Assembly (NCBI RefSeq): GCF_002283365.1
Contig: NZ_MQWD01000001.1
Coordinates: forward strand, 2,279,665-2,343,664
Origin: Rubrivirga marina
Lineage (GTDB): Bacteria > Bacteroidota > Rhodothermia > Rhodothermales > Rubricoccaceae
DNA length: 64,000 nucleotides
Reading direction: 5' to 3'
Of this stretch, positions 18,409 through 54,677 are shown piece by piece. The notes beneath the pieces are model-generated. The model did no database searches, had not been told where the DNA came from, and worked only from the letters and a program-made list of their open reading frames with translations. Made by a program: the position numbers and the translations under genes. The stretch's first letter is position 1. Every line of letters begins with the position of its first letter.

Positions 18409-19746
18409 ATGCCCCGTTCGCTTCATACGCCCGCGCGGCTCGCCTTCCTGCTCGCCCTCGGGCTCCTCACCCGCCCCGCCTCGGCGCAGTCGGGCTGTGG
18501 GGCGCCCGACCCGTTGCGCGTTCCGTTCCCGACGCTGGATGCCGCGCTCGACCAGGGGTTCACGCTGACCTCCCAGCGGTGGGACCGGGACGCTCAGGTT
18601 TGGGAAAACGAGTATCGGTCTACGTACCGACGCGAGGAGCTGCAGACCGGGGCGCGGCTCTTCGCTCGGTGGTCCTCGGAGACGGAGAGTTGGCTTGAGT
18701 ACGTGCTCGACGCGGCCTACACGCTCGACGCGGATCGGCGGCTGGTCGAGACGCGCTACATGAACACCGAGGGGGAGCCGTACCAGCGCGATGTCGTGAT
18801 CTACGGAACGGACGGGTATCCGTCTATCGAAACCCGCGAGGATCGGTGGGGGACCGGGTGGGTCGGCAACCGTCGGTACATCTATGACTACACCCCCGAC
18901 GGCCAACTCGCGGGGTACCGGTTCGAGCGGAACTACGAAGGGTGGACCCTTTCCTTGGAGTACGAGGGCACGTTCGACGAGGAGGGCCGCCGTGTGCTCT
19001 GCGCGTTCCGCTCCGATACGGAGGGGCCGTTCACCAAACGAATCGAGACCACCTACGACGATCGAGACCGGCCTTTGAGCCTCATCGAGTTGGGATGGGA
19101 CGGGGAGGCCGGCACGTACGTCCAGGTGGGCGATAGCATCGGGTTCACGTACCCCGAGGTCGGCCACTCGACGCAGATCGCCTACCACTACGTTGGGTTT
19201 CTGGACCTGTGGCGGCCGGAACGCCGGAGTATCCGCTCCTACGACGCGGCCGATCGCCTCGTCGAGGTCATCGGCGAGGTCTATGCGGGCTCCGATCCGG
19301 ATCAGCCCGGTGAGTGGTTGTTGCGTCCGGTCGATCGCGTCCAGCTTGGCTACCACGACGACGGGCGGCTCGCGTCGCACACCCGGGGCCGGTACGAGGA
19401 GGACGCAGAGGCCTGGGTGAACGACCGCCGCTATCTCTTCGAGTACGCCTTCGGGACGGCGTCCGAGACGACGATGCCCTCCGCCTCGGGCCTCGCGCTG
19501 GCGGTCGCGCCGAACCCGTCGGCCGGCGCGTTCGTCGCCCGGCTCTCGGCTGACGGCGCCGCCGAGGCGCGCGTGGTCGTGTTCGACGCGCTCGGCCGGC
19601 GCGTCCGCATCGCGCACGACGGGCCGGTCGCGGCCGGCGAGACCGCGCTCCCGATCGACCTCAGGGGGCTGCCGGCGGGCGTCTACGTACTCCGTGCCAG
19701 GGTCGACGGCGCCATCGTGAGCCAGACGGTGACGGTCGTGCGCTAG
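18409..19746 (+). CDS. Secreted YD/RHS-like repeat protein with T9SS C-terminal domain
   Basis: The 445-residue protein begins MPRSLHTPARLAFLLALGLL, a signal peptide ending ASAQ. It carries several tandem strands with WDxDAxxWxxExR and Y-D-x-D-x-R themes (RYIYDYTPDGQLAGYRFERN, TYDDRDRPLSLIELGWDG, IRSYDAADRLVEV), reminiscent of YD/RHS repeats. The last ~80 residues (VAPNPSAGAFVARL, VFDALGRRV, LPAGVYVLRA, ending TVTVVR) are a type A T9SS sorting domain. ATG 18409 was chosen over the TTG two codons upstream. Function is unknown; surface display is inferred. Confidence 0.85.
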   Translation: MPRSLHTPARLAFLLALGLLTRPASAQSGCGAPDPLRVPFPTLDAALDQGFTLTSQRWDRDAQVWENEYRSTYRREELQTGARLFARWSSETESWLEYVLDAAYTLDADRRLVETRYMNTEGEPYQRDVVIYGTDGYPSIETREDRWGTGWVGNRRYIYDYTPDGQLAGYRFERNYEGWTLSLEYEGTFDEEGRRVLCAFRSDTEGPFTKRIETTYDDRDRPLSLIELGWDGEAGTYVQVGDSIGFTYPEVGHSTQIAYHYVGFLDLWRPERRSIRSYDAADRLVEVIGEVYAGSDPDQPGEWLLRPVDRVQLGYHDDGRLASHTRGRYEEDAEAWVNDRRYLFEYAFGTASETTMPSASGLALAVAPNPSAGAFVARLSADGAAEARVVVFDALGRRVRIAHDGPVAAGETALPIDLRGLPAGVYVLRARVDGAIVSQTVTVVR

Positions 19747-41318: not shown

Positions 41319-43691
41319 ATGCGCCCCGCCCTCGTCTTCGCCCTGCTGGCCCTCGCCGGCCCCGCGCTCGCGCAGCGCATGTCGCCGCTCACCATCGAGC
41401 AGATCACCCAGCGGCCCGAGGACTGGATCGGCGCGTGGCCGTCGGAGCCGTACTGGACCGAGGCCGGCGACGCGGTCTACTTCGAGTGGAACCCCGACGG
41501 GCGCTTTCCGGCCGACTCCCTCTTCCGCGTCGACCCGGCCGGCGGCGAACCCGAGGCGGTCCCGGCCGACGTCCGCCGGGGCCTCCCGCCGCGCTTCGAG
41601 GGCTGGGCCGCCGACGGCCGGTACTCGCCCGACGGCACGCGCCGGGCGTTCACGCGCGGCGGCGACGTCTACGTCTACGACCGCGCGACCGGCCGCACGG
41701 AGCGGATCACCCGGACGCCCGCCCGCGAGTCGTCCCCGCGCTACCTCGCCGACGGCGCGCTCGTCTTCCGCCGGGGGGACGCGCTCGTCGGACTGGTGGG
41801 CGGCGCGGTCGTCCAGCTCACCGACCTCCGGACGGGCACGGAGCCGGCTGACCCGTCGCCGTCCGACCGCGCGGCCTACCTCCGCGACCAGCAGCGGCGG
41901 CTGTTCGACGTGATCCGCCAGCGCGCGCTCCAGGACTCGCTCGCCGAGGCCGCCCGCGAGCGCGAGGCCCTCGACGCCGACGCCCCGCCCACGTTCTACC
42001 TCGGCGACCAGTCCGTCGGCCAGCTCGCCGCCGACGCGGGCGGGCGGTTCGTGGCCTTCACGCTCTCCGACCAGCCCGACCCCGAGCCGACGCTCCTCAT
42101 CAACTACGTGACGGAGACCGGCGTGGCCGCCGAGATCGAGGCCCGGCCGAAGGTCGGCGCCCCGCGCGTCGGGGCCGACCTCTACGTCCAGGATCTCGCC
42201 CGCGACACGACGGTCCGGATCGACCTCACGACACTTCCCGGCGCCTTCGACCCGTCCGATTTCTCCGACGCCCCCGCCGACTCCGCCCGGATGTTCCAGC
42301 CGTGGCTCGCGTGGAGTCCCGAGCCCGGCGTCGCCGTCGTCGACGTCCGGACGATCGACAACAAGGACCGCTGGATCGCCCGCCTCGACGCCGCGACGGG
42401 CGTCCTCACGACGCTCGACCGCCAGCGCGACGAGGCGTGGGTCGGCGGGCCCGGCATCTCGTGGTGGGGCGGGTCGAGCGCAGGCGGCTTCCTCCCAGAC
42501 GGCCGCTACTGGTTCCAATCGGAGCGGACCGGCTGGAGCCACCTCTACGCGGCCGACCTCGCCCGCGGGACGGTCGAGGCGCTGACGGAGGGGCCGTTCG
42601 AGGTCGAGGAGGCGATCCTGTCGGCCGACGGCGAAACGTGGATCCTCGAAACGTCGGAGGGGGACCTCGGCCAGCGGCAGGTCTGGACGATGCCGAACGC
42701 GCGCGGCGGCTTCGCGCGGCGGCGGCAGGTCACGGAGGCAGTCGGGAAGTGGGACGTGGCCGTCGCGCCCGACGGCGAGCGGCTCGCGTTCCTCCACTCG
42801 ACCTCGACGCGGCCGCCGGAGGTCCACGTCGGCCGCCTCGGCGGCGAGATCGAGCGGGTCACAGACTCGGTGCGTGACGAGTGGGCGGCGTACCCGTGGC
42901 GCGAGGCCGAGATCGTCGAGATCCCGGCGTCCGACGACCTGGCGGTGCCCGCGCGGATCTACCGGCCCGACGACCCGAACGGCGCGGCCGTCCTGTTCGT
43001 CCACGGCGCCGGCTACCTCCAGAACGCGCACCGCTGGTGGAGCAGCTACTTCCGCGAGTACCAGTTCCACAACCTCCTGGCCGATCTCGGCTACGTCGTC
43101 CTCGACGTCGACTACCGGGCCTCGGCCGGCTACGGCCGCGACTGGCGGACGGCCGTCTACCGTCACATGGGCGGGCGCGACCTCCAGGACTACGTCGACG
43201 CCAGCGCGTGGCTCGGCGACGAGTTCGGGATCCCGCCAGAGCGCGTCGCGATCTACGGCGGCTCGTACGGCGGCTTCCTCACGTTGATGGCCCTGTTCAC
43301 GGAGCCCGAGCACTTCGGCGGCGGCGCCGCGCTCCGCAGCGTGACCGACTGGGCCCACTACAACGACACGTACACGCGCAACATCCTCAACACGCCGCTC
43401 CAGGATCCCGAGGCCTATCGGCGGTCGTCGCCCATCGAGTTCGCCGCCGGCCTTGAGGACCCGCTCCTCATGACCCACGGCCTCGTCGACGACAACGTCC
43501 AGCCGCAGGACATCTTCCGGCTGACGCAGCGGCTCATCGAGCTCGGCAAGCGGGACTGGGAGCTGGCGATCGCGCCCGTCGAGCCCCACGGCTACGTCGA
43601 GCCGACGTCGTGGGCCGACAAGCTCCACCGGATCCTCGACCTGTTCGAGCACGCCGTCGGGCCGGAGCGCGGCGACGAGAGCGAGGGCTGA
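41319..43691 (+). CDS. S9 family serine peptidase (DPP4/acylaminoacyl-peptidase-like), secreted
   Basis: The 790-residue protein has a signal peptide (MRPALVFALLALAGPALAQ), a beta-propeller N-domain (YSPDGTRRAFTRGGDVYVYD and similar blades), and a C-terminal alpha/beta hydrolase domain. The nucleophile is Ser649 in IYGGSYGGFLTL, the acid is in MTHGLVDDNVQPQD and the His in IAPVEPHGYVEPTSW. It probably cleaves peptides or acyl-peptides in the periplasm or outside. A long helical insertion (AAYLRDQQRRLFDVIRQRAL) interrupts the propeller. A 32-bp palindrome starts right after the stop. Confidence 0.93.
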   Translation: MRPALVFALLALAGPALAQRMSPLTIEQITQRPEDWIGAWPSEPYWTEAGDAVYFEWNPDGRFPADSLFRVDPAGGEPEAVPADVRRGLPPRFEGWAADGRYSPDGTRRAFTRGGDVYVYDRATGRTERITRTPARESSPRYLADGALVFRRGDALVGLVGGAVVQLTDLRTGTEPADPSPSDRAAYLRDQQRRLFDVIRQRALQDSLAEAAREREALDADAPPTFYLGDQSVGQLAADAGGRFVAFTLSDQPDPEPTLLINYVTETGVAAEIEARPKVGAPRVGADLYVQDLARDTTVRIDLTTLPGAFDPSDFSDAPADSARMFQPWLAWSPEPGVAVVDVRTIDNKDRWIARLDAATGVLTTLDRQRDEAWVGGPGISWWGGSSAGGFLPDGRYWFQSERTGWSHLYAADLARGTVEALTEGPFEVEEAILSADGETWILETSEGDLGQRQVWTMPNARGGFARRRQVTEAVGKWDVAVAPDGERLAFLHSTSTRPPEVHVGRLGGEIERVTDSVRDEWAAYPWREAEIVEIPASDDLAVPARIYRPDDPNGAAVLFVHGAGYLQNAHRWWSSYFREYQFHNLLADLGYVVLDVDYRASAGYGRDWRTAVYRHMGGRDLQDYVDASAWLGDEFGIPPERVAIYGGSYGGFLTLMALFTEPEHFGGGAALRSVTDWAHYNDTYTRNILNTPLQDPEAYRRSSPIEFAAGLEDPLLMTHGLVDDNVQPQDIFRLTQRLIELGKRDWELAIAPVEPHGYVEPTSWADKLHRILDLFEHAVGPERGDESEG

Positions 43692-43783: not shown

Positions 43784-45532
43784 ATGCGCCGCCGTCTCCC
43801 GCTCGTCCTGTCCGTCCTCCTCGTCGCGTCCGCGTGCCGCGCGCAGCGGTCGCCGACGGCGGACCCCGCGCGGGCCGAGCGCGGGATGGTCGTCTCGGCG
43901 GAGATCAACGCCTCCGAGGCCGGCGTGGAGGTCATGCGGGGGGGCGGCAACGCGGTTGACGCGGCGGTGGCGACTGGCTTCGCGCTCGCCGTCACGTTCC
44001 CCGTGGCCGGCAACATCGGCGGCGGCGGGTTCATGGTGATCCGGTTCCCCGACGGGACCGCCACGACCATCGACTACCGCGAGACGGCGCCCACCGGCGC
44101 CACGCGCGACATGTACGTCGACGACTCGACGGGCCAGATCCGGCCCGACCTCAGCCGTCGAGGGCACCTCGCGAGCGGCGTGCCGGGCGCCGTCGCCGGC
44201 CTCCTCAAAGCCCATGAGCAGTATGGTCAGGCGCCGCTCGCCGACGTGATGGCGCCCGCCATCCGGCTCGCGGAGGGCTACCCGCTCAGCCGCGCCGAGG
44301 CGGAGCTGATGAACGCCTACGCCGGCCGGTTCTCGGCGTACCCCGGGACGGTCCGCCACTTCACGCAGGAGGGGGGCTACGAGGCCGGCGAGACGTTCCG
44401 CCAGCCTGAGTTGGCCGCCGCGCTCCGCCGGATCCGCGACGAGGGCCGCGACGGGTTCTACCGCGGCGAGACGGCCGACCTCCTCGTCGCCGAGATGGAG
44501 CGGGGGGGAGGTCTCATCGACCACGCCGACCTCGAGGGCTACGAGGCCGTCGAGCGCGAGCCCGTGACGGGCGACTACCGCGGCCACCGCATCATCTCCA
44601 TGCCGCCGCCGTCGTCGGGCGGCGTGGCGCTCATCCAGATGCTCGATTCGGTCGAGCCGTTCGACGTCGGCGCGCTCGGGTTCAACTCGTCGGCGACGGT
44701 CCACCTCCTGGGGGAGGCGATGCGCCGGGCCTTCGCCGATCGCGCCGAGTACCTCGGCGACCCCGACTTCTCGGACATCCCGACCGAGGAACTCATCGAC
44801 GAGGACTACACGCGCGAGCGGATGGCGTCGTTCGACCCCGTCAAGGCCGACTCCAGCACGGGCGTCGGCGCCGGCCTCCACGAGTCGATGCAGACGACGC
44901 ACTACTCGGTCGTCGACGCCGATGGGATGGCGGTCTCGGTCACCACGACGCTCAACGGCGGGTTCGGCTCGCTGGTCGTGGTCGAGGGCGCCGGGTTCTT
45001 CCTCAACAACGAGATGGACGACTTCACGTCGGCGCCCGGCGAGCCCAATATGTTCGGGCTCGTGCAGGGCGAGGCCAACGCGATCGCGCCGGGCAAGCGG
45101 ATGCTCTCGTCCATGACGCCGACGATCGTGGAGGACCCCGAGGGCCGGCTGATGCTCGTCGTCGGGAGCCCCGGCGGCCCGCGCATCATCACGGCCGTGT
45201 ACCAGACGATCCTCAACGTGATCGACCACGGGATGGACGTCCAGGAGGCCGTCGCCGCGCCGCGCGTCCACCACCAGTGGCTCCCCGACGAGTTGGACTA
45301 CGAAAACCAGGGGCTCGCGCTCGACGTGGTCGTCGCGCTCCAGGAGCGCGGGTGGGCGCTCGACGAGTCGGGCGGCTACTGGGCCCGCGTCGATGCCATC
45401 GAGGTCGTCTACGACGAGGCCACGTCCACGACCGACCCCTCCGGCCTCGACGCCGTGACCGCCGAGGCGGCGGGGCGCGTCCTTTACGGCGGCGCCGATC
45501 CGCGCGGCGAGGACGCGGCGGCGGGCTACTGA
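43784..45532 (+). CDS. ggt: Gamma-glutamyltransferase
   Basis: The 582-residue proenzyme hydrolyses or transfers gamma-glutamyl groups, e.g. of glutathione, in the periplasm. The signal MRRRLPLVLSVLLVASACRA has a lipobox-like SAC. The large subunit carries MRGGGNAVDAAVATGFALAV and IGGGGFMVIRFPDG. Autocleavage should occur before Thr371 in MQTTHYSVVDADG, followed by VTTTLNGGFGS and the oxyanion region MLSSMTPTIVED. All key motifs are present and the length is normal. The last ~30 codons are duplicated as a remnant at 48816-48938, after the first kelch gene. Confidence 0.95.
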   Translation: MRRRLPLVLSVLLVASACRAQRSPTADPARAERGMVVSAEINASEAGVEVMRGGGNAVDAAVATGFALAVTFPVAGNIGGGGFMVIRFPDGTATTIDYRETAPTGATRDMYVDDSTGQIRPDLSRRGHLASGVPGAVAGLLKAHEQYGQAPLADVMAPAIRLAEGYPLSRAEAELMNAYAGRFSAYPGTVRHFTQEGGYEAGETFRQPELAAALRRIRDEGRDGFYRGETADLLVAEMERGGGLIDHADLEGYEAVEREPVTGDYRGHRIISMPPPSSGGVALIQMLDSVEPFDVGALGFNSSATVHLLGEAMRRAFADRAEYLGDPDFSDIPTEELIDEDYTRERMASFDPVKADSSTGVGAGLHESMQTTHYSVVDADGMAVSVTTTLNGGFGSLVVVEGAGFFLNNEMDDFTSAPGEPNMFGLVQGEANAIAPGKRMLSSMTPTIVEDPEGRLMLVVGSPGGPRIITAVYQTILNVIDHGMDVQEAVAAPRVHHQWLPDELDYENQGLALDVVVALQERGWALDESGGYWARVDAIEVVYDEATSTTDPSGLDAVTAEAAGRVLYGGADPRGEDAAAGY

Positions 45533-45740
45533 CCCGGCCCGCGACAGGCCCGAGGCGGAGGGGACGGCTCCGCGCGTGGGGCCGTGGGGCGCAAAAAAAG
45601 CCGGGGCGGCATCATCCTACCCGCGCTCCAACGAGTAGACTCGGTCCCGCGGCCTGGCCCTCCCGGCCTGGCTGCAAGTCCCATCCCGTCTTCACGCTGG
45701 GAGCGCCGGGGCGGCCTCCTCCCAGGGTGCCTCTCCAGCC

Positions 45741-48689
45741 ATGCCCTTTCGGCTTCCAGCCGCGGCCCCCCGGGCCGCCGCCTGCGTCCTCCTCACCCTC
45801 TCGCTGGTCGGGGGCCCTGGCGCTCCTGTGGCCCTGGCGCAGTCGGGGGCGGGCAGCGCGCCCTGGACCCTCCTGGCCCCGGCCCTCGAGCCCCGCGTCG
45901 AGGCCCCCGGCGTGGTCGTCGAAGGCAAGCTCTACGTCTTCGCTGGGTTCACCGACGCCGACCTCCACGTCACGGGCAGTGTAGAGGTCTACGACCCCGT
46001 GCAGAACACCTGGACCCCACGGGCTCCCATGCCTCGGCCCGTGACCCACGTCGGTACGGCGGTCGTCGGCCGGGAGGTGTGGTTCGTCGGCGGCTTCGAG
46101 GGCGACAACCCCGGAAGCGCCGTCAAGGCCGTGCAGGTCTACGACACCGGCACAGACACCTGGCGGGTAGGGCCCCCTCTGCCGGCCCGCCGAGCGTCGG
46201 GGACGCTGGCGGCCGTCGGCCGGACCCTCCACCACATCGGGGGCCTCCTCCCCGACCGGCAGACCGACGTGGGCGACCACTACGTGCTGAACCTGGACCG
46301 GCCGCAGGACGGGTGGAGAACGGCGGCGCCGCTCCCGGTCCCACGCAACCACCTCAGCAGCGCGGTCTACGGCGGCCGGATCTACGCCATCGGTGGCCAG
46401 CAGGGCCACGACGAGGGCCGCCGGTTCCGGTCCGAGCTCCACGCCTACGACCCGGCGACCGACACGTGGGCGCGCCGGGCCGACCTCCCCATCCGGCGCT
46501 CGCATTTCGAGCCGGGCACGTTCGTCTGGGACGGTCGGATCGTCATCGTGGGTGGCGTGGGCCGGGGCGCGGACAACAACCGCGCGATGGACCAGATCAC
46601 CGCCTACGACCCGCAGAGCGACACGTGGACGGAGCTCGACCCGCTCCCGGTTCGGCTCCTCGGACCCGTCGCCCAGGTGATCGATGGCCAACTCATCGTC
46701 ACCCACGGGGGCCTCGACCTGACGGAGGACCCGCAGAACACGGCCCGGTCGCGGTCCCTGAACCAGCCGCCGGTGGCCTCGTTCGCGGCGGCTCCAGACG
46801 GGGCCTCGCCCCTGACGCTCCGCTTCGATGCGTCGGACTCGTCGGACCCGGACGGTTCGGTCGTCGGGTACACGTGGGCGTTCGGCGACGGGGCGACGGG
46901 GTCTGGGAAGACTGTGGCCCACACCTACGCCGCGGCGGGGACGTACACGGCCACTCTCACGGTGACCGACAACGGCGGCGCGGCCGGGACGGCCCAGCAG
47001 ACGGTCACGGCGGGGGGGGCGGGGCCCGGCCCGTTCGTCGAGGCCGACGGGCTCGTCGTCGCCGAGGCCGAGCACACCCACGAGTCGGTCGCCCGCGGGG
47101 GCCAGTCGTGGACGGCCACCCCAGCCTCGGGCGCCGTCGGGACGGCCCTCGGCGTACTCCCGAACACGGGGGCCAACATCAACGCCGGGTTCGTCGACAC
47201 GTCGCCCGAACTCCGGTTCCGGGTCCGCTTCTCGACGCCGGGGACGTACTACGTGTGGGGCCGCGTCCTCGCCGGCTCCGACGACGACGACTCGTTCCAC
47301 GCTGGGATCGGCGGGGCGGGCCCGGCCTCGGCCGACCGGATCTTCACGACGGATCGGGCCCAGTTGGTCTGGGCGAACCGGACGATGGACCAGAATTCGA
47401 GAGCGACGATCACCGTCGCCTCAGCCGGCGAGCACGTCGTCAGCGTGTGGATGCGGGAGGACGGGCTCGTCCTCGACCGGCTCCTCCTCACGACGAGCGC
47501 GTCGTTCACCCCGTCCGGGGCCGGCCCGCCCGAGAGCGCCCGCGGCGCTGGCGGCGCCGGGCCGGTGGCCGAGGCCGGCACCGTGACCGTGTCTCAGCCG
47601 AGCGGCGACGCATGGCACGCCGTGCCCTTCGAGCGCCCGTTCACCGATCCCGTCGTCGTCGCTGGCCCCGCCTCGTCCGAGGGCTCCGACCCGGTCACCG
47701 TTCGCGTCCGCAACGTGACGCCGACCGGGTTCGAGCTCCAACTCGACGAGTGGGACTACCTCGACGGCCGGCACGTGGCGGAGACGGTGTCGTGGCTCGC
47801 CGTCGAGAGCGGCGTGCACCAGCTCGACGGCGGCGGGCTGATCGAGGCGGGGCTCGTCGGGGCCAGCGAGACCATGAAGACCTACGGCCTCGGCGCCGGC
47901 TTCGCCTCCGCGCCGGTCCTCGTGAGCCAAGTCGTCACAGCAGGCGGGGGCGCCGTCGTGACGCGCCAGCGGAACGTCACGGCCGGGTCGTTCCAACTCC
48001 GGATCCAGGCGCAGGAGTCGGCGGACTACCCCGGCGCAGAGACGGTGGCGTACGTGGCGGTCGAGGCCGGGGCCGTCGCGGGCGTGCTCGAGGCGGGGCG
48101 GACGCCCGACGCCGTGGGGGACCTCTTCCACGAGGTCGGCCTGGGGACCGGCTTCGCCTCGGCCCCCGCGCTCCTGGCGTCGATGCAGACCTTCGACGGG
48201 GCCGACCCGGCCACGCTGCGCTACCGGGCCCTGACGGGCTCCCGGTTCGAGGTGCGCGCCGAGGAGGAGCAGTCGGCCGACGAGGAGACGGACCACACGG
48301 ACGAGGTCGTCGGGTACCTCGCCATCGCCCCGGGCGGTCTCCTCGGCACTCCGCTGGCCGGGGCGCTCGAGGCCTCGGCGCCCACGGGTCCCGCCGGAGC
48401 CGGCGCGCTCTTGGAGTCGGAGCCGGCCGGGTACGCGCTGGAGCCGCCCTTCCCGAACCCGTTCCATTCGGTCACGTCCCTCCACTACGCACTGCCCGAG
48501 GCCGCCGACGTCCGCCTGGACGTCTTCGACGCGCTCGGGCATCGCGTCGCGCTCCTGGTCGACGGGCGCGTCGAGGCCGGTCGGTACGTGGTCCGCTTCG
48601 ATGGGGCCGGCTTCGCCAGCGGCGTCTACTTCTTCCGGTTCCAAGCGGGCCCGTTCTCGGAGACCCGGCGGATGGCGCTGCTCCGGTAG
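45741..48689 (+). CDS. Large secreted kelch-propeller protein with PKD, CBM-like and T9SS domains (copy 1)
   Basis: The 982-residue protein has a signal peptide ending VALAQ and a six-repeat kelch propeller to about residue 335 (KLYVFAGFTDADLHVTGSVE, VWFVGGFEGDNPGSA, IYAIGGQQGHDEGRR). A PKD domain spans about 341-425 (SSDPDGSVVGYTWAFGDG), then a carbohydrate-binding-like domain about 432-590. Three tandem ~90-residue modules follow (about 605-865) sharing R-x-R-N-V-T...F and E-T-V-x-x-[LV]-A-V-E. The C-terminus is a T9SS sorting domain (FPNPFHSVTSLHYALP, ending RRMALLR). Probably cell-surface recognition of glycans or proteins. Its 208-bp upstream spacer holds an A7 run (45593-45599). Confidence 0.85.
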   Translation: MPFRLPAAAPRAAACVLLTLSLVGGPGAPVALAQSGAGSAPWTLLAPALEPRVEAPGVVVEGKLYVFAGFTDADLHVTGSVEVYDPVQNTWTPRAPMPRPVTHVGTAVVGREVWFVGGFEGDNPGSAVKAVQVYDTGTDTWRVGPPLPARRASGTLAAVGRTLHHIGGLLPDRQTDVGDHYVLNLDRPQDGWRTAAPLPVPRNHLSSAVYGGRIYAIGGQQGHDEGRRFRSELHAYDPATDTWARRADLPIRRSHFEPGTFVWDGRIVIVGGVGRGADNNRAMDQITAYDPQSDTWTELDPLPVRLLGPVAQVIDGQLIVTHGGLDLTEDPQNTARSRSLNQPPVASFAAAPDGASPLTLRFDASDSSDPDGSVVGYTWAFGDGATGSGKTVAHTYAAAGTYTATLTVTDNGGAAGTAQQTVTAGGAGPGPFVEADGLVVAEAEHTHESVARGGQSWTATPASGAVGTALGVLPNTGANINAGFVDTSPELRFRVRFSTPGTYYVWGRVLAGSDDDDSFHAGIGGAGPASADRIFTTDRAQLVWANRTMDQNSRATITVASAGEHVVSVWMREDGLVLDRLLLTTSASFTPSGAGPPESARGAGGAGPVAEAGTVTVSQPSGDAWHAVPFERPFTDPVVVAGPASSEGSDPVTVRVRNVTPTGFELQLDEWDYLDGRHVAETVSWLAVESGVHQLDGGGLIEAGLVGASETMKTYGLGAGFASAPVLVSQVVTAGGGAVVTRQRNVTAGSFQLRIQAQESADYPGAETVAYVAVEAGAVAGVLEAGRTPDAVGDLFHEVGLGTGFASAPALLASMQTFDGADPATLRYRALTGSRFEVRAEEEQSADEETDHTDEVVGYLAIAPGGLLGTPLAGALEASAPTGPAGAGALLESEPAGYALEPPFPNPFHSVTSLHYALPEAADVRLDVFDALGHRVALLVDGRVEAGRYVVRFDGAGFASGVYFFRFQAGPFSETRRMALLR

Positions 48690-48815
48690 GGGCCCCGCGT
48701 GGCGGCGGGCCGGCGCTGCACACCAGGGTTGCGCACGCCATCGGCACGACACGGGCGGCCCCACCGCGAATCCGGCGGTCCGCGCGAGTCGCCGCGCTGG
48801 ACGAGTCGTCACTAC

Positions 48816-48938
48816 ACGACCGACCTGTCCGGCCTCGACGCTGCCGTGGGCGAGGCCGAGGGCCGCGTCCTGTACGGCGGCGCCGACCCGCGCGGCGAGG
48901 ATGCCGCGGCGGGTTCCTGGCCCCCCCAGGGGAGCTAG
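48816..48938 (+). pseudogene. Duplicated 3' end of gamma-glutamyltransferase gene
   Basis: In the 439-bp spacer between the kelch genes, one frame reads TTDLSGLDAAVGEAEGRVLY then GGADPRGEDAAAG, nearly identical to the end of the transferase (TTDPSGLDAVTAEAAGRVLY, GGADPRGEDAAAGY). It then runs on as SWPPQGS to a stop at 48936-48938. There is no start or catalytic part. It marks the left boundary of a segmental duplication that created the second kelch gene. The rest of the spacer resembles the spacer before kelch copy 1 in part (ACGCTGG/GACGCCGGG words near 49083) and holds no gene. Confidence 0.85.
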
Positions 48939-49128
48939 GCGAAGCGTGTTCGCCCCGATGGACTCGTGTTGAGACGGCGATTTGAGATGGGGAGTGGCAG
49001 AGGGCGCCCTCCGCTCCGGGAGTGGCGCCCCATCCTTCGGTCGCGGCGCCCCAGGCTCGGCCGCGTGTCCCGACTCGTCTGCACGCTGGAGACGCCGGGA
49101 CGACCTCGTCGTGGATCTCGCCCTCTCC

Positions 49129-51276
49129 ATGTCACCCATCCGAGCCGCCGCCATTCGGGCGACAGCCTGCGTTCTTTTCCTGTCTGCCGGAGCCGTGCGT
49201 GTCCCCCCGGCCCTGGCCCAGGATGGGGCGGGTGGCGCGTCGTGGACGCTCCTGGCCCCGGCCCTCGAGCCCCGCGTCGAGGCCCCCGGCGTGGTCGTCG
49301 AAGGCAAGCTCTACGTCTTCGCCGGGTTCACCGACGCCGCCCTCCAGATCACGGGGACCGTCGAGGCCTACGACCCCGCGACGGACACCTGGGCCCCTCG
49401 GGCCCCCATGCCCCAGCCCGTGACCCACGTCGGGGCAGCGGCGGTCGGCGGCGACGTCTGGTTCGTGGGCGGGTTCGAGGGCGACAACCCCGGCAGCGCC
49501 GTCCGCGCCGTCCAGGTCTACGACACCGCGACGGACAGGTGGCGTACGGGCCCCGCCCTGCCGGTCGCCCGCGCGTCGGGGACGCTGGCCGCCGTCGGCC
49601 GGACCCTCCACCACATCGGGGGCCTCCTCCCCGACCGGCAGACCGACGTGGGCGACCACTACGTCCTCGACCTCGACCGACCGGAGGCCGGGTGGACGAG
49701 TGCGGCGCCGCTCCCGATCCCGCGGAACCACCTCAGCAGCGCCGTCATCGGCGGCCAGATCTACGCCATCGGGGGGCAGCAGGGCCACGACGAGAGCCGC
49801 CGGTTCCGGTCCGAGCTCCACGTCTACGACCCGGCGACCGACACGTGGGCGCGCCGAGCCGACCTCCCCGTCCGGCGCTCGCACTTCGAGCCGGGGACGA
49901 CGGTCTGGGACGGTCGGATCCTCATCGTGGGCGGCGTGGGCCGAGGGGCCGAGAACAACCAGGCGATGGACCAGATCACGGCGTACGACCCGCAGAGCGA
50001 CACGTGGACGGAGCTCGACCCGCTCCCGGTTCGGCTCCTCGGACCCGTCGCCCAGGTGATCGGCGGCCAGCTGGTCGTCACGCATGGGGGGCTCGGGCGG
50101 ACGGAGAACCCCCAGGACGTGGCCCGGTCGCGTCCCCTGATGTCCGTGCGGACCGATTCGCTCATCGGCGAGGCTGGGTGGGCAACGGTTGAGCAAGACG
50201 GCTCGTCCGAGTGGCACCTCGTCTCTTTCGCGCGCCCCTACGCCGACCCGGTCGTCGTGATGGGCCCCGCCTCGTCCAATGGCGCCGAGCCGATTACCGT
50301 CCGGGTCCGGAACGTGACGGCGGCCGGGTTCGAGTTCCAACTCGACGAGTGGGACTACCTCGACGGCCAACACGGGACTGAGACCGTCTCGTGGCTCGCC
50401 GTCGAGCGGGGCGTGCACCGGGTCGGGGAAGGCCGGCTGCTCGAAGCGGGGCTCGTGACGGCCAGCGGGGCCCCAGAGAGCTTCGGCTTCGGTGCCGACT
50501 TCGCCTCGGCGCCTGTCCTCTTCAGCCAGGTCTCGACGGCGGCCGGCGCGGGGGCCGTCGTGACGCGCCAGCGCGACGTCTCGGCCGGGTCGTTCCAGCT
50601 CCGGCTCCAGGGAGAGGAGTCGACGGATCACCAGGGCGTGGAGACGGTGGCGTACGTGGCGGTCGAGGCCGGGGCCGTCGCGGGCGTGCTCGAGGCGGGA
50701 CGCACCCCTGCCCCCATCGATCACTCGTACGCCGCGGTCAGCCTGGAGGACGGTTTCGCATCGGCCCCGGCGCTCTTGGCCTCGATGCAGACCCTGAATG
50801 AGAGCGACCCCGCGACGCTGCGCTACCGGGCCCTTACGGGGGCCGGGTTCGAGGTCCGCGTCGAGGAGGAGCAGTCGGCGGACCCGGAGACGGACCACAC
50901 GGGCGAGGTCGTCGGCTTCCTCGCCCTCGCCCCCGGCGGCCTCCGCGGCACGACGCTGGCCGGCGGGGGCACGACGAATCCCACGGCCACCTCGCCCGCT
51001 CCCTCGGGCGCGGGAGTGCCCCGACTGGAGGCGGCCTCGCCAAACCCGTTCCGTTCGGCCACGGCCATTCGCTACGCGTTGCCGGTGGCCGCCGACGTCC
51101 GCCTCGAGGTCTTCGACGCGCTGGGGCAGCGCGTGGCGCTGCTGGTCAGCGAGCGCATAGAGGCTGGCCGCCACGAGGCCCGCTTCGATGGGGCCGGCTT
51201 CGCCAGCGGCGTCTACTTCTTCCGGTTCCAAGCGGGCCCGTTCTCGGAGACCCGGCGAGTGGCGCTGCTCCGGTAG
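49129..51276 (+). CDS. Secreted kelch-propeller protein with T9SS domain (copy 2)
   Basis: The 715-residue paralog of the preceding gene has a signal peptide (MSPIRAAAIRATACVLFLSA ... PPALAQ) and a kelch propeller almost identical to copy 1 (GVVVEGKLYVFAGFTDAAL, HHIGGLLPDRQTDVGDHYVL). It lacks the PKD and carbohydrate-binding domains and passes directly into the three ~90-residue modules (about 355-625; GFEFQLDEWDYLDGQHGTET, LRYRALTGAGFEVRVEEEQS). A T9SS domain follows, ending RRVALLR. The final 77 bp before the last codons (51181-51257) are identical to 48594-48670. The ATG at 49129 is supported by the signal peptide. Confidence 0.85.
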   Translation: MSPIRAAAIRATACVLFLSAGAVRVPPALAQDGAGGASWTLLAPALEPRVEAPGVVVEGKLYVFAGFTDAALQITGTVEAYDPATDTWAPRAPMPQPVTHVGAAAVGGDVWFVGGFEGDNPGSAVRAVQVYDTATDRWRTGPALPVARASGTLAAVGRTLHHIGGLLPDRQTDVGDHYVLDLDRPEAGWTSAAPLPIPRNHLSSAVIGGQIYAIGGQQGHDESRRFRSELHVYDPATDTWARRADLPVRRSHFEPGTTVWDGRILIVGGVGRGAENNQAMDQITAYDPQSDTWTELDPLPVRLLGPVAQVIGGQLVVTHGGLGRTENPQDVARSRPLMSVRTDSLIGEAGWATVEQDGSSEWHLVSFARPYADPVVVMGPASSNGAEPITVRVRNVTAAGFEFQLDEWDYLDGQHGTETVSWLAVERGVHRVGEGRLLEAGLVTASGAPESFGFGADFASAPVLFSQVSTAAGAGAVVTRQRDVSAGSFQLRLQGEESTDHQGVETVAYVAVEAGAVAGVLEAGRTPAPIDHSYAAVSLEDGFASAPALLASMQTLNESDPATLRYRALTGAGFEVRVEEEQSADPETDHTGEVVGFLALAPGGLRGTTLAGGGTTNPTATSPAPSGAGVPRLEAASPNPFRSATAIRYALPVAADVRLEVFDALGQRVALLVSERIEAGRHEARFDGAGFASGVYFFRFQAGPFSETRRVALLR

Positions 51277-51548
51277 CGCTCCGTTTGGCGGGGGGAGGCC
51301 GGACTCAGCCCGACGAGCGACCGAGGTGGCCTCCCTGAGGCGAGCAGACGGTCGGTCGCCGAGCCACCGTGGCGAGCCGTTACCGGTCTGTAACCCTTCA
51401 GTGAGGACCGCGTGAGCGTGGCGTGGCGCCCGCATAAAGAAGGGAACGATCATCCCGCCTCCATCGAAGGGGCGTCCCCAGAGGCATAGGTTCGCCGGCG
51501 ATCCCTGGCCGGACCCCTCGGCCGTCCCCCCCACACGCACCACCCTCT

Positions 51549-54500
51549 ATGACCAGCGTCACGATCCGCCGCCTCGCGATGGCCCTGCTGGCCCTCGTTG
51601 CGGCCCCTGCCTTCTCGCAGGGCGTCACGACGGCCGCCATGAACGGGACCGTCACGGACGAGGCTGGCCTCGGCCTCCCCGGCGCGACCGTCCTCGCCGT
51701 TCACGAGCCGTCCGGCACGCAGTACGGCATCTCCACGCGCGCCGACGGTCAGTTCGACCTCCGCAACCTCCGCGTCGGTGGCCCCTACACCGTCACCGTC
51801 TCGTTCGTCGGCTACACCACCGTCCAGCAGACGGGCATCACGCTCGAGCTGAGCGAGAACGAGCAGGTCGACGTCCAGCTCACGCCGGCCGACGCGACGA
51901 TCGGCGAGGCCGTCGTCACGGCGGAGGGCAACGCGATCATCTCGTCGTCGAACATCGGCACGGGCACGAACGTCTCCGAGGAGGAGATCGAGCGGCTCCC
52001 GACGATCACCCGGAGCCTCACGGACTTCACGCGCCTGACCCCGCAGTTCTCGCAGGTCGGCAGCGGCAGCGAGGCCGGCACGTCCGTCGGCGGCACGTCG
52101 AGCCGGTACAACAACATCCAGGTCGACGGGGCCGCGCTCAACGACGCGTTCGGGCTGGAGAGCTCGGGCACCCCGGGCGGCTCGTCCGGCACGCAGCCGA
52201 TCTCGCTCGACGCCGTCTCCGAGTTCCGGGTGGCCATCGCGCCGTACGACGTGAGCCAGGGCGGCTTCACGGGCGGCAACATCAACGTCATCACGCGCTC
52301 GGGCACGAACACGTTCACGGGCTCGGTCTACGGCCTCGGCCGGAACCAGGACCTCGTCGGGACGGGCGTCGACGGCGACGCGTTCAACGACTTCACCGAC
52401 GTGACCTACGGCGGGCGGCTCGGCGGGCCGATTCTCCGCGACAAGCTGTTCTTCTTCGGCAGCGTCGAGATCGGTGACACGAACGAGCCCATCGTCGCCA
52501 ACTTCAACGACGCTGCCGCCGCTCAGGAGATCCAGACCATCCTCGAGACGCAGTACGGCCGCGAGACCGGCACGATCGGGACGTTCGACGCCGGGACCCA
52601 GTCGGCGAAGGTGTTCGGGCGGCTCGATTACAACATCAACCCGTCGAACAACCTGACGGCCCGGTTCAACTACGTCCAGGGTAAGAAGGACGATGGGATC
52701 TCCCGGAGCTCGAACTTCTACACGCTCGAGGACCGCCTCTACACGCGCCAGAACACGAACACCTCCTCGGTGGTCGAGCTCCGGAGCATCCTCGGCCAGA
52801 ACGCGGCCAACCTCCTCCGGGCGAGCCTCCAGACGAACCGCCAGCCGTCGGTCCTCGAGTTCCCGGCCTTCCCGTCGATCGAGATCCGCGGCCTCGGCAG
52901 CGACGGCCGCGCGACGGTCGTCGCCGGCCCCGACCAGTTCCGCGGCGCCAACCGGATCGACGCCGACGTGTTCGAGCTCGTCAACGACTTCAACTACTTC
53001 GTGGGCGACCACGTCGTGACCGTCGGGACCCAGAACACGTTCTCGAGCTTCGAGAACCTGTTCATCCGCAACTTCTACGGGTACTACCGCTTCTCCAACC
53101 TCGAGGACTTCCGCAACGGGCGGGCCTCGCTCTACGAGCGGAACTACTCGGCGATCGCCGGTGAGGACCGCCCCCTCGCGGACTTCTCGTACGCCAACTT
53201 CAGCCTCTACGCCCAGGACGAGTGGACGGGCATCGAGAACCTGAAGCTGACGGGCGGCCTCCGCGTCGACATGGCCCACTTCTTCGACCAGCCGTCGCCG
53301 GCCTACGACGCCAGCAGCGGGGCGTCGTTCGAGAGTCTCTTCGGGTTCGACAACACGGAGGTGCCCAACGGCAACCCGGTCTTCCAGCCGCGCTTCGGGT
53401 TCAACTACTCGGTCCCGGGCGAGCGCTCGACGCAGATTCGCGGCGGCACGGGCCTCTTCAACGGCTCGAACCCGGCCGTCTGGATCTCGAACTCGTTCTC
53501 GAACGACGGCACCCTCCTCGGTGGCGTCTCCGTCCGGAACGCGGACCAGATCGCGGCGGCCGGCGGGTTCCGGACGGACCCGGCCAACCAGTACACCGCC
53601 GCCGACTTCGGCTTCGCCGAGGGCTCGGCCGAGATCAACTTCACCGACCCCGACTTCAAGTCGCCGACGGTGTGGCGCTCGAACATCGCCGTGGACCAGG
53701 AGCTGCCGGGCGGCCTCGTCGCAACGGGCGAGTTCCTCTACACCGACGTCGTCAACGGCGTCCAGTGGCAGAGCCTCAACCGGCAGCCGTTCGTCCTCGA
53801 CCCCAACACGGTCGACGGCCGGACCGGCGTCACGCGGGCCCGGGTGTCGGGCGACTACCAGGACGTGATCGTGCTGACGAACACGGACCAGGGCTACGCC
53901 TACAACCTGACGGGCCAGCTCCAGAAGCCGATCGGCACGGGCGCGGCGCCCCAGTTCGGCGGCAGCCTGAGCTACACGTTCGGCCAGGTCAAGGACATCA
54001 ACTCGGTGACCTCCAGCCAGGCCCGCTCCAACGTCCGCGACCTCACGGTCGGGCTCGACGTGAACGACCCGCCGCTGACGACCTCGAACTTCGAGGTGGC
54101 CCACCGCGTGCTCGCGACGGCGTCCTACGGCGTCGAGTACGGCGGTCGGTTCGCGACTACGTTCTCGCTGATCTACGACGGGCAGGCCGGCCGGCCGTAC
54201 TCGTTCGTGTACTCGAGCGGCGACGACGTCAACGGCGACGGCTTCGACCGGGCCGACCTCGTCTACGTCCCGGCGAGCCGGGATGAGGTGGTGATCGACG
54301 ACGCCGAGTGGACGGCCCTCGACGCCTTCATCGAGGGCAACGAGGCGCTGCGCGAGCAGCGCGGCCAGATCTTCGAGCGGAACTCGACGCGGGCCCCGTG
54401 GCTCCACTTCCTCGATGCCCGCGTCGCCCAGAGCATCCAGACGCTGACGGGCCAGGACGTCGAGATCACGCTCGACATCCAGAACGTGCTCGACCTGCTC

Positions 54501-54677
54501 GGGACGGACCTCGGCCAGGTGGAGACAGTCGGCGACCGGTTCGAACTCCTCGAGTTCGGTGGCTACGACGCCCAGGGCCGGCAGATCATCTCGTTCGAGA
54601 CGCCGACGACGATCGCCGAGGTCAGCGACTTCGCGTCGCGCTGGCGGATGCAGCTCGGCCTCCGCTACAACTTCTAG
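51549..54677 (+). CDS. Oar-like TonB-dependent outer-membrane receptor
   Basis: The 1042-residue protein has a signal peptide (TIRRLAMALLALVAAPAFSQ) and a carboxypeptidase-regulatory domain (MNGTVTDEAGLGLPGATVLA, PYTVTVSFVGYTTVQQTGI). A plug-like region (SRYNNIQVDGAALNDAFGLE, GGNINVITRSGTNTFTGSVY) leads into a long beta-barrel ending RWRMQLGLRYNF with the terminal Phe expected for BAM insertion. Members of this family transport or secrete proteins or bind peptides and are often near T9SS cargo. A possible -7 box TAGGTTCG (51487-51494) lies 54 nt upstream in a 272-bp spacer that also holds the small inverted repeat TTACCGGTCTGTAA. Confidence 0.9.
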   Translation: MTSVTIRRLAMALLALVAAPAFSQGVTTAAMNGTVTDEAGLGLPGATVLAVHEPSGTQYGISTRADGQFDLRNLRVGGPYTVTVSFVGYTTVQQTGITLELSENEQVDVQLTPADATIGEAVVTAEGNAIISSSNIGTGTNVSEEEIERLPTITRSLTDFTRLTPQFSQVGSGSEAGTSVGGTSSRYNNIQVDGAALNDAFGLESSGTPGGSSGTQPISLDAVSEFRVAIAPYDVSQGGFTGGNINVITRSGTNTFTGSVYGLGRNQDLVGTGVDGDAFNDFTDVTYGGRLGGPILRDKLFFFGSVEIGDTNEPIVANFNDAAAAQEIQTILETQYGRETGTIGTFDAGTQSAKVFGRLDYNINPSNNLTARFNYVQGKKDDGISRSSNFYTLEDRLYTRQNTNTSSVVELRSILGQNAANLLRASLQTNRQPSVLEFPAFPSIEIRGLGSDGRATVVAGPDQFRGANRIDADVFELVNDFNYFVGDHVVTVGTQNTFSSFENLFIRNFYGYYRFSNLEDFRNGRASLYERNYSAIAGEDRPLADFSYANFSLYAQDEWTGIENLKLTGGLRVDMAHFFDQPSPAYDASSGASFESLFGFDNTEVPNGNPVFQPRFGFNYSVPGERSTQIRGGTGLFNGSNPAVWISNSFSNDGTLLGGVSVRNADQIAAAGGFRTDPANQYTAADFGFAEGSAEINFTDPDFKSPTVWRSNIAVDQELPGGLVATGEFLYTDVVNGVQWQSLNRQPFVLDPNTVDGRTGVTRARVSGDYQDVIVLTNTDQGYAYNLTGQLQKPIGTGAAPQFGGSLSYTFGQVKDINSVTSSQARSNVRDLTVGLDVNDPPLTTSNFEVAHRVLATASYGVEYGGRFATTFSLIYDGQAGRPYSFVYSSGDDVNGDGFDRADLVYVPASRDEVVIDDAEWTALDAFIEGNEALREQRGQIFERNSTRAPWLHFLDARVAQSIQTLTGQDVEITLDIQNVLDLLGTDLGQVETVGDRFELLEFGGYDAQGRQIISFETPTTIAEVSDFASRWRMQLGLRYNF

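What the first reader, a model, noticed from the sequence alone, without database searches (positions are those of the whole stretch)
43784..51276. Segmental duplication [ggt 3' end + kelch gene] produced the second kelch protein
Between the kelch genes lies a headless copy of the last ~30 codons of gamma-glutamyltransferase (48816-48938), in the same position relative to kelch 2 as the true ggt end is to kelch 1. One tandem duplication with its left breakpoint inside ggt explains both. Afterwards copy 2 lost, or copy 1 gained, a PKD plus carbohydrate-binding block, while propeller and C-terminus stayed nearly identical.
Basis: seen in the sequence. Interest (0 to 1): 0.6.

Follow-up and report, generated by a model that had tools for sequence, protein, structure and literature searches.

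The report
Tandem duplication of a kelch-lectin gene
A stretch of chromosome carrying the tail of one gene and the whole of the next was copied in tandem, giving this bacterium two secreted sugar-binding-type proteins that have since drifted apart and changed domains; it is a clear but ordinary case of gene duplication.

Summary
Between kelch genes K1 (45741-48689) and K2 (49129-51276) lies a start-less copy of the last 34 codons of ggt (82% aa, E 1.4e-9), found nowhere else in the genome and colinear through the spacer into K2. Two blocks (45427-46761 vs 48815-50140; 47613-48709 vs 50212-51295) are about 80% identical. One tandem duplication with its left breakpoint inside ggt is by far the best reading (0.9).
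A congener has ggt and the TonB-type receptor gene 257 bp apart with no kelch gene, and none of eight family genomes has one, so kelch probably entered there first. Silent-site divergence makes the duplication somewhat younger than the split from that congener.
K1's extra PKD + GH115_C block was probably ancestral and lost from K2 (about 0.75): its domain order recurs in two paralogs of the same genome, and outside one 260-bp patch it is no younger than the duplication. That patch (47040-47300) looks like gene conversion with a paralog 167 kb away.
"Nearly identical" is overstated: propellers are 85% identical, sorting domains 74%. Both genes keep selected reading frames and encode predicted T9SS-secreted lectin-like proteins. 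Ordinary evolution, well documented.

The parts
43784..45532 (+). ggt, gamma-glutamyltransferase; its 3' end is the left end of duplication copy 1
   Evidence: Pfam PF01019 E 3.3e-161; 85% identical orthologue in congener G001
45427..48709 (+). Duplication unit, copy 1: ggt 3' end + spacer + K1
   Evidence: blastn to copy 2, about 80% nt in two blocks
45741..48689 (+). K1, 982 aa: signal, kelch propeller, PKD, GH115_C, H-type lectin region, T9SS type A sorting domain
   Evidence: Pfam, NCBIfam TIGR04183 26.0 vs cut-off 23
46761..47612 (+). PKD + GH115_C block present in K1, absent from K2; probably lost from K2
   Evidence: Pfam PKD_4 2e-23, GH115_C 1.8e-20; same domain order in paralog L123
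47040..47300 (+). Gene-conversion-like patch shared with paralog at G000:C1 about 2,160,000
   Evidence: about 92% nt there against 73-79% on either side; 4-fold differences 6/64 vs 24/72; permutation p 0.001
48781..48808 (+). Possible further piece of duplicated ggt (matches 45346-45371)
   Evidence: local alignment, shuffle p 0.004; tentative
48816..48938 (+). Headless ggt remnant: last 34 codons, stop lost, runs to TAG
   Evidence: 82% aa, E 1.4e-9; alignment
48815..51295 (+). Duplication unit, copy 2: ggt remnant + spacer + K2
   Evidence: blastn
49129..51276 (+). K2, 715 aa: signal, kelch propeller, H-type lectin region, T9SS type A sorting domain
   Evidence: Pfam, TIGR04183 26.3 vs 23, AlphaFold model mean pLDDT 81 with kelch propeller
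51549..54677 (+). TonB-receptor-type outer membrane protein; right neighbour, adjacent to ggt in congener G001
   Evidence: Pfam; 85% identical orthologue 257 bp after ggt in G001

Best explanation
A kelch-PKD-GH115_C-lectin-T9SS gene came to lie between ggt and a TonB-type receptor gene in this lineage. One tandem duplication then copied a segment of about 3.3 kb, running from inside the ggt 3' end to just past the kelch stop. The junction left the order ggt - K1 - headless ggt tail - K2 - receptor. The ggt tail lost its stop and decayed, while K1 and K2 both stayed open under purifying selection. K2 then most likely lost the PKD + GH115_C block by one deletion. K1 later exchanged about 260 bp of GH115_C with a paralog elsewhere. 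Both products are predicted to be exported by the type IX secretion system and to bind surface glycans through their lectin and propeller domains. Shown by sequence: the colinear duplication, the remnant, the empty site in the congener. Inferred: order of events, the K2 deletion, the conversion, export and glycan binding.
For: Colinear 80% identity of [ggt tail-spacer-kelch]. Unique ggt tail fragment, E 1.4e-9. Congener G001 has ggt and receptor 257 bp apart with no kelch, and no family genome has this kelch. K1 and K2 propellers are sisters at 100/99 support with equal branches 0.09/0.08 among 25 kelch proteins. K1-K2 dS 0.37 and dN/dS 0.44. 4-fold divergence 102/375, below ggt 124/318 (p 0.001) and receptor 182/509 (p 0.007) between G000 and G001. 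Remnant vs ggt 19/105, G000-G001 23/105 over the same bases. Block loss: kelch-PKD adjacency also in L122 and PKD-GH115_C-lectin-sorting order also in L123; block outside the conversion patch has dS 0.51-0.59 to L123, not below K1-K2. T9SS domain passes its NCBIfam cut-off in both.
Against: The exact right junction (48710-48780) matches nothing clearly, so breakpoint microhomology cannot be read. Only one relative keeps the ggt-receptor adjacency, so loss of kelch in G001 is not excluded, and no relative with a single kelch copy was found. Patchy K1-K2 identity (dispersion p 0.005) suggests conversion between them, which would make the duplication look younger than it is. Block divergence outside the patch is not significantly above K1-K2 (24/72 vs 102/375, p 0.32), so loss rests mainly on domain order.
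Confidence: 0.9

Rival explanations
1. Xenologous (Campbell-type) integration: a diverged homologous segment [ggt tail-spacer-kelch] from a related strain recombined into the ggt end, so the 20% divergence arose between lineages rather than after duplication.
For: Gives the same gene order. The remnant is as close to G003 ggt (20/105) as to the local ggt (19/105).
Against: No donor lineage with this kelch gene was found among 60 relatives. Divergence from G001 is even along ggt, with no hybrid step at its 3' end. The remnant shares LYGG with the local ggt where G001, G003 and G004 have LLGG.
Confidence: 0.07
2. Two independent insertions of similar kelch genes downstream of ggt, each by chance next to ggt-like DNA.
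For: Kelch proteins of this type are widespread and patchy.
Against: Does not explain the ggt tail plus colinear spacer in front of K2, or K1 and K2 being each other's closest relatives.
Confidence: 0.01
3. Block polarity reversed (same duplication): the ancestral gene was kelch-lectin-sorting domain as in K2, and K1 gained PKD + GH115_C from an L123-like paralog.
For: K1's GH115_C as a whole is closer to L123 (83% aa) than the neighbouring lectin region is (54% aa).
Against: The excess similarity is confined to a patch at 47040-47300; the rest of the block is about as diverged as the lectin region. Gain would have to recreate two adjacencies already seen in other paralogs.
Confidence: 0.22
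4. The ggt remnant is kept for a function (leader peptide, terminator or regulatory RNA for K2).
For: A short open frame persists.
Against: No start codon at its head; two substitutions changed the terminal Tyr-stop TACTGA to TCCTGG; 18% divergence in 105 bp.
Confidence: 0.03

Closest known systems
Tandem segmental duplication with a truncated copy of the flanking gene
   Same: Two direct, adjacent copies; one breakpoint inside a neighbouring gene leaves a headless fragment at the junction; such duplications arise at high rates in bacteria (PMC3857721)
   Different: Old and diverged (20% nt) rather than recent and identical
Duplicated PE_PGRS17/18 gene pair of mycobacteria (PMC1762029)
   Same: Tandem duplicate pair with gene conversion and an in-frame insertion/deletion difference between copies
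   Different: Unrelated proteins; here the clearest conversion is with a paralog 167 kb away, and conversion between K1 and K2 is only suggested
T9SS-exported multidomain surface proteins (TIGR04183 / Por_Secre_tail)
   Same: Signal region, modular extracellular domains, type A sorting domain at the C-terminus
   Different: Domain mix kelch + H-type lectin; secretion not tested here

Membership tests
Tandem segmental duplication | Two direct adjacent copies with colinear similarity beyond the gene | tested here: met
Tandem segmental duplication | Truncated copy of flanking gene at the junction, absent elsewhere in the genome | tested here: met
Tandem segmental duplication | Relative with the unduplicated locus (single kelch) | tested here: inconclusive
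   Congener has zero copies, not one
Tandem segmental duplication | Recognisable breakpoint junction or microhomology | tested here: inconclusive
   48710-48780 unmatched
T9SS type A cargo | C-terminal sorting domain above curated cut-off | tested here: met
   TIGR04183 26.0 and 26.3 vs 23; Pfam PF18962 below its own cut-off (18.2, 21.3 vs 27)
T9SS type A cargo | Exported and cleaved by T9SS | not testable with these tools
   needs experiment
Kelch beta-propeller protein | Kelch repeats forming a propeller | tested here: met
   Kelch_1 4.1e-37 / 1.8e-39; model matches kelch propellers, E 7e-21, target TM 0.85
N-acetylneuraminate epimerase (NanM) | Full-length NanM match above cut-off | tested here: not met
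   85.7 bits vs cut-off 416
H-type lectin | PF09458 above cut-off | tested here: inconclusive
   K1 27.2 vs 24, K2 22.7 vs 24
Gene conversion tract (K1 with L123) | Localised excess of shared variants at silent sites | tested here: met
   permutation p 0.001; 6/64 vs 24/72; tract limits chosen after inspection

The most novel reading that the evidence does not exclude
The ggt neighbourhood is a recurrent landing site for T9SS cargo genes in this genus (two kelch cargo genes after ggt here, two other sorting-domain genes before ggt in the congener), and cargo paralogs across the genome swap binding domains by ectopic gene conversion and deletion, as a slow diversification system for surface proteins.
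Probability: 0.15. Interest if true: 0.45.

Novelty: new member of a known kind. Interest (0 to 1): 0.22.

Why it matters
The ggt remnant is a fossil of a breakpoint. It ties the origin of a diverged gene pair to one event, shows that kelch was already beside ggt when it happened, and lets the later domain loss and gene conversion be put in order. As biology it is a clean textbook example, useful for annotation and for studying how multidomain secreted lectin-like proteins diversify, not a new mechanism.

Tried and rejected
Chance similarity of the ggt fragment: rejected (E 1.4e-9, colinear). Origin of the K1/K2 propellers from the kelch part of the 2666-aa paralog in the same genome: rejected, that one groups with a Solirubrobacteraceae protein at 100/99. 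Gain of the PKD/GH115_C block by K1: first seemed favoured by low whole-block dS to L123, but the signal is confined to one patch. Longest-run test for K1-K2 conversion on silent sites alone: not significant (p 0.15), only over-dispersion is (p 0.005), so conversion between K1 and K2 is left as suggestive. Junction DNA 48710-48780 against the genome: nothing convincing. Plasmid collection: no near-full-length relative. First S9 peptidase comparison used a wrong frame and was redone.

Full report
What is there. The window lies in contig 1 of a 4.98 Mb genome. From left to right: an S9-family peptidase (41319-43691), ggt (43784-45532), K1 (45741-48689), a ggt remnant (48816-48938), K2 (49129-51276) and a TonB-receptor-type outer membrane protein (51549-54677), all on the + strand. 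K1 holds a kelch propeller, PKD_4, GH115_C, an H-type lectin region with internal repeats and a T9SS type A sorting domain. K2 has the same parts without PKD and GH115_C.

The duplication. Blastn joins 45427-46761 to 48815-50140 (80.5%) and 47613-48709 to 50212-51295 (79.7%); the gap between the two blocks is the PKD/GH115_C block of K1. Similarity starts inside ggt, runs through the ggt tail, the spacer and the kelch gene, and ends about 20 bp after the kelch stop. Ggt against the whole genome finds the gene, one full-length paralog, and this tail fragment only. A further 27-bp match suggests that the left breakpoint was slightly deeper in ggt. The right-hand junction, 48710-48780, matches nothing clearly.

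Relatives. In congener G001 the ggt and receptor orthologues (85% aa each) lie 257 bp apart with nothing between. The region just after the ggt stop is partly alignable to that spacer, and so, weakly, is the stretch just before the receptor. No genome among eight in the family has a kelch relative at E 1e-20; the nearest are two genomes of another family of the order at 46-49% aa. So K most likely entered between ggt and the receptor before it was duplicated, although loss in G001 cannot be excluded from one genome. In a tree of 25 kelch proteins K1 and K2 are sisters (100/99) with equal branches.

Age. K1-K2: dS 0.37, dN/dS 0.44, 4-fold 102/375. G000-G001: ggt dS 0.53, 124/318; receptor dS 0.40, 182/509; S9 peptidase dS 0.52. 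The 4-fold differences from K1-K2 are significant for ggt and receptor (p 0.001, 0.007). The remnant differs from ggt at 19/105 bases against 23/105 for ggt of G000 and G001. All point to a duplication somewhat younger than the split, with the caveat that gene conversion between K1 and K2, suggested by over-dispersed silent differences (p 0.005) and runs of 59-79 identical bases, would make it look younger.

Which copy changed. L122 (2666 aa) has PKD directly after its kelch domain, and L123 (1232 aa) has PKD-GH115_C-lectin-sorting domain in K1's order. Over the whole block K1 is unusually close to L123, which at first looks like recent gain. Sliding comparison shows the excess is limited to about 47040-47300: 4-fold differences 6/64 there, 24/72 in the rest of the block; permutation p 0.001. 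L122 does not share the excess, so it is not simple constraint. Outside the patch dS is 0.51-0.59, no lower than K1-K2. The simplest history is an ancestral block, deletion from K2, and a later conversion between K1 and L123. The block comparison with K1-K2 is not itself significant (p 0.32), so this rests chiefly on domain order; about 0.75.

Function. Both proteins are predicted to be secreted: TIGR04183 passes its cut-off in both (26.0 and 26.3 vs 23), and the genome has about a hundred matches to this C-terminal region. An AlphaFold model of K2 (mean pLDDT 81, pTM 0.53) has a kelch propeller matching solved kelch domains (target TM about 0.85) followed by beta domains and the sorting domain. 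Full NanM membership fails (85.7 bits vs 416). A glycan-binding surface role is inference from domain families.

Verdict. Real, correctly read in the main, ordinary in kind. The literature examined shows bacterial tandem duplication and gene conversion in duplicate pairs to be well known (PMC3857721, PMC1762029, PMC6053082).

Noticed in passing
47040-47300 and L123 (G000:C1 about 2,160,000): Gene-conversion-like patch of about 260 bp between K1's GH115_C domain and a paralog 167 kb away.
   Followed up: yes
L118:7639-9399 and L118:9403-10920 (congener G001): Two genes with T9SS sorting-domain matches, one with BNR repeats, sit between S9 peptidase and ggt in G001, where the window has only about 90 bp: the same neighbourhood gained different secreted-protein genes in the two species.
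   Followed up: partly
L122:3623-11620: A 2666-aa protein in the same genome with malectin, kelch, four PKD domains, GH115_C, two lectin regions and a T9SS sorting domain; its two lectin regions are themselves 78% identical (internal duplication).
   Followed up: partly
whole genome, e.g. window 19558-19637: About a hundred places encode the T9SS sorting-domain region, a large set of predicted secreted cargo.
   Followed up: no
L032 (G003:C2:142881-144635): Second ggt-like gene of G003 has one in-frame TGA, perhaps a pseudogene or a sequencing error.
   Followed up: no
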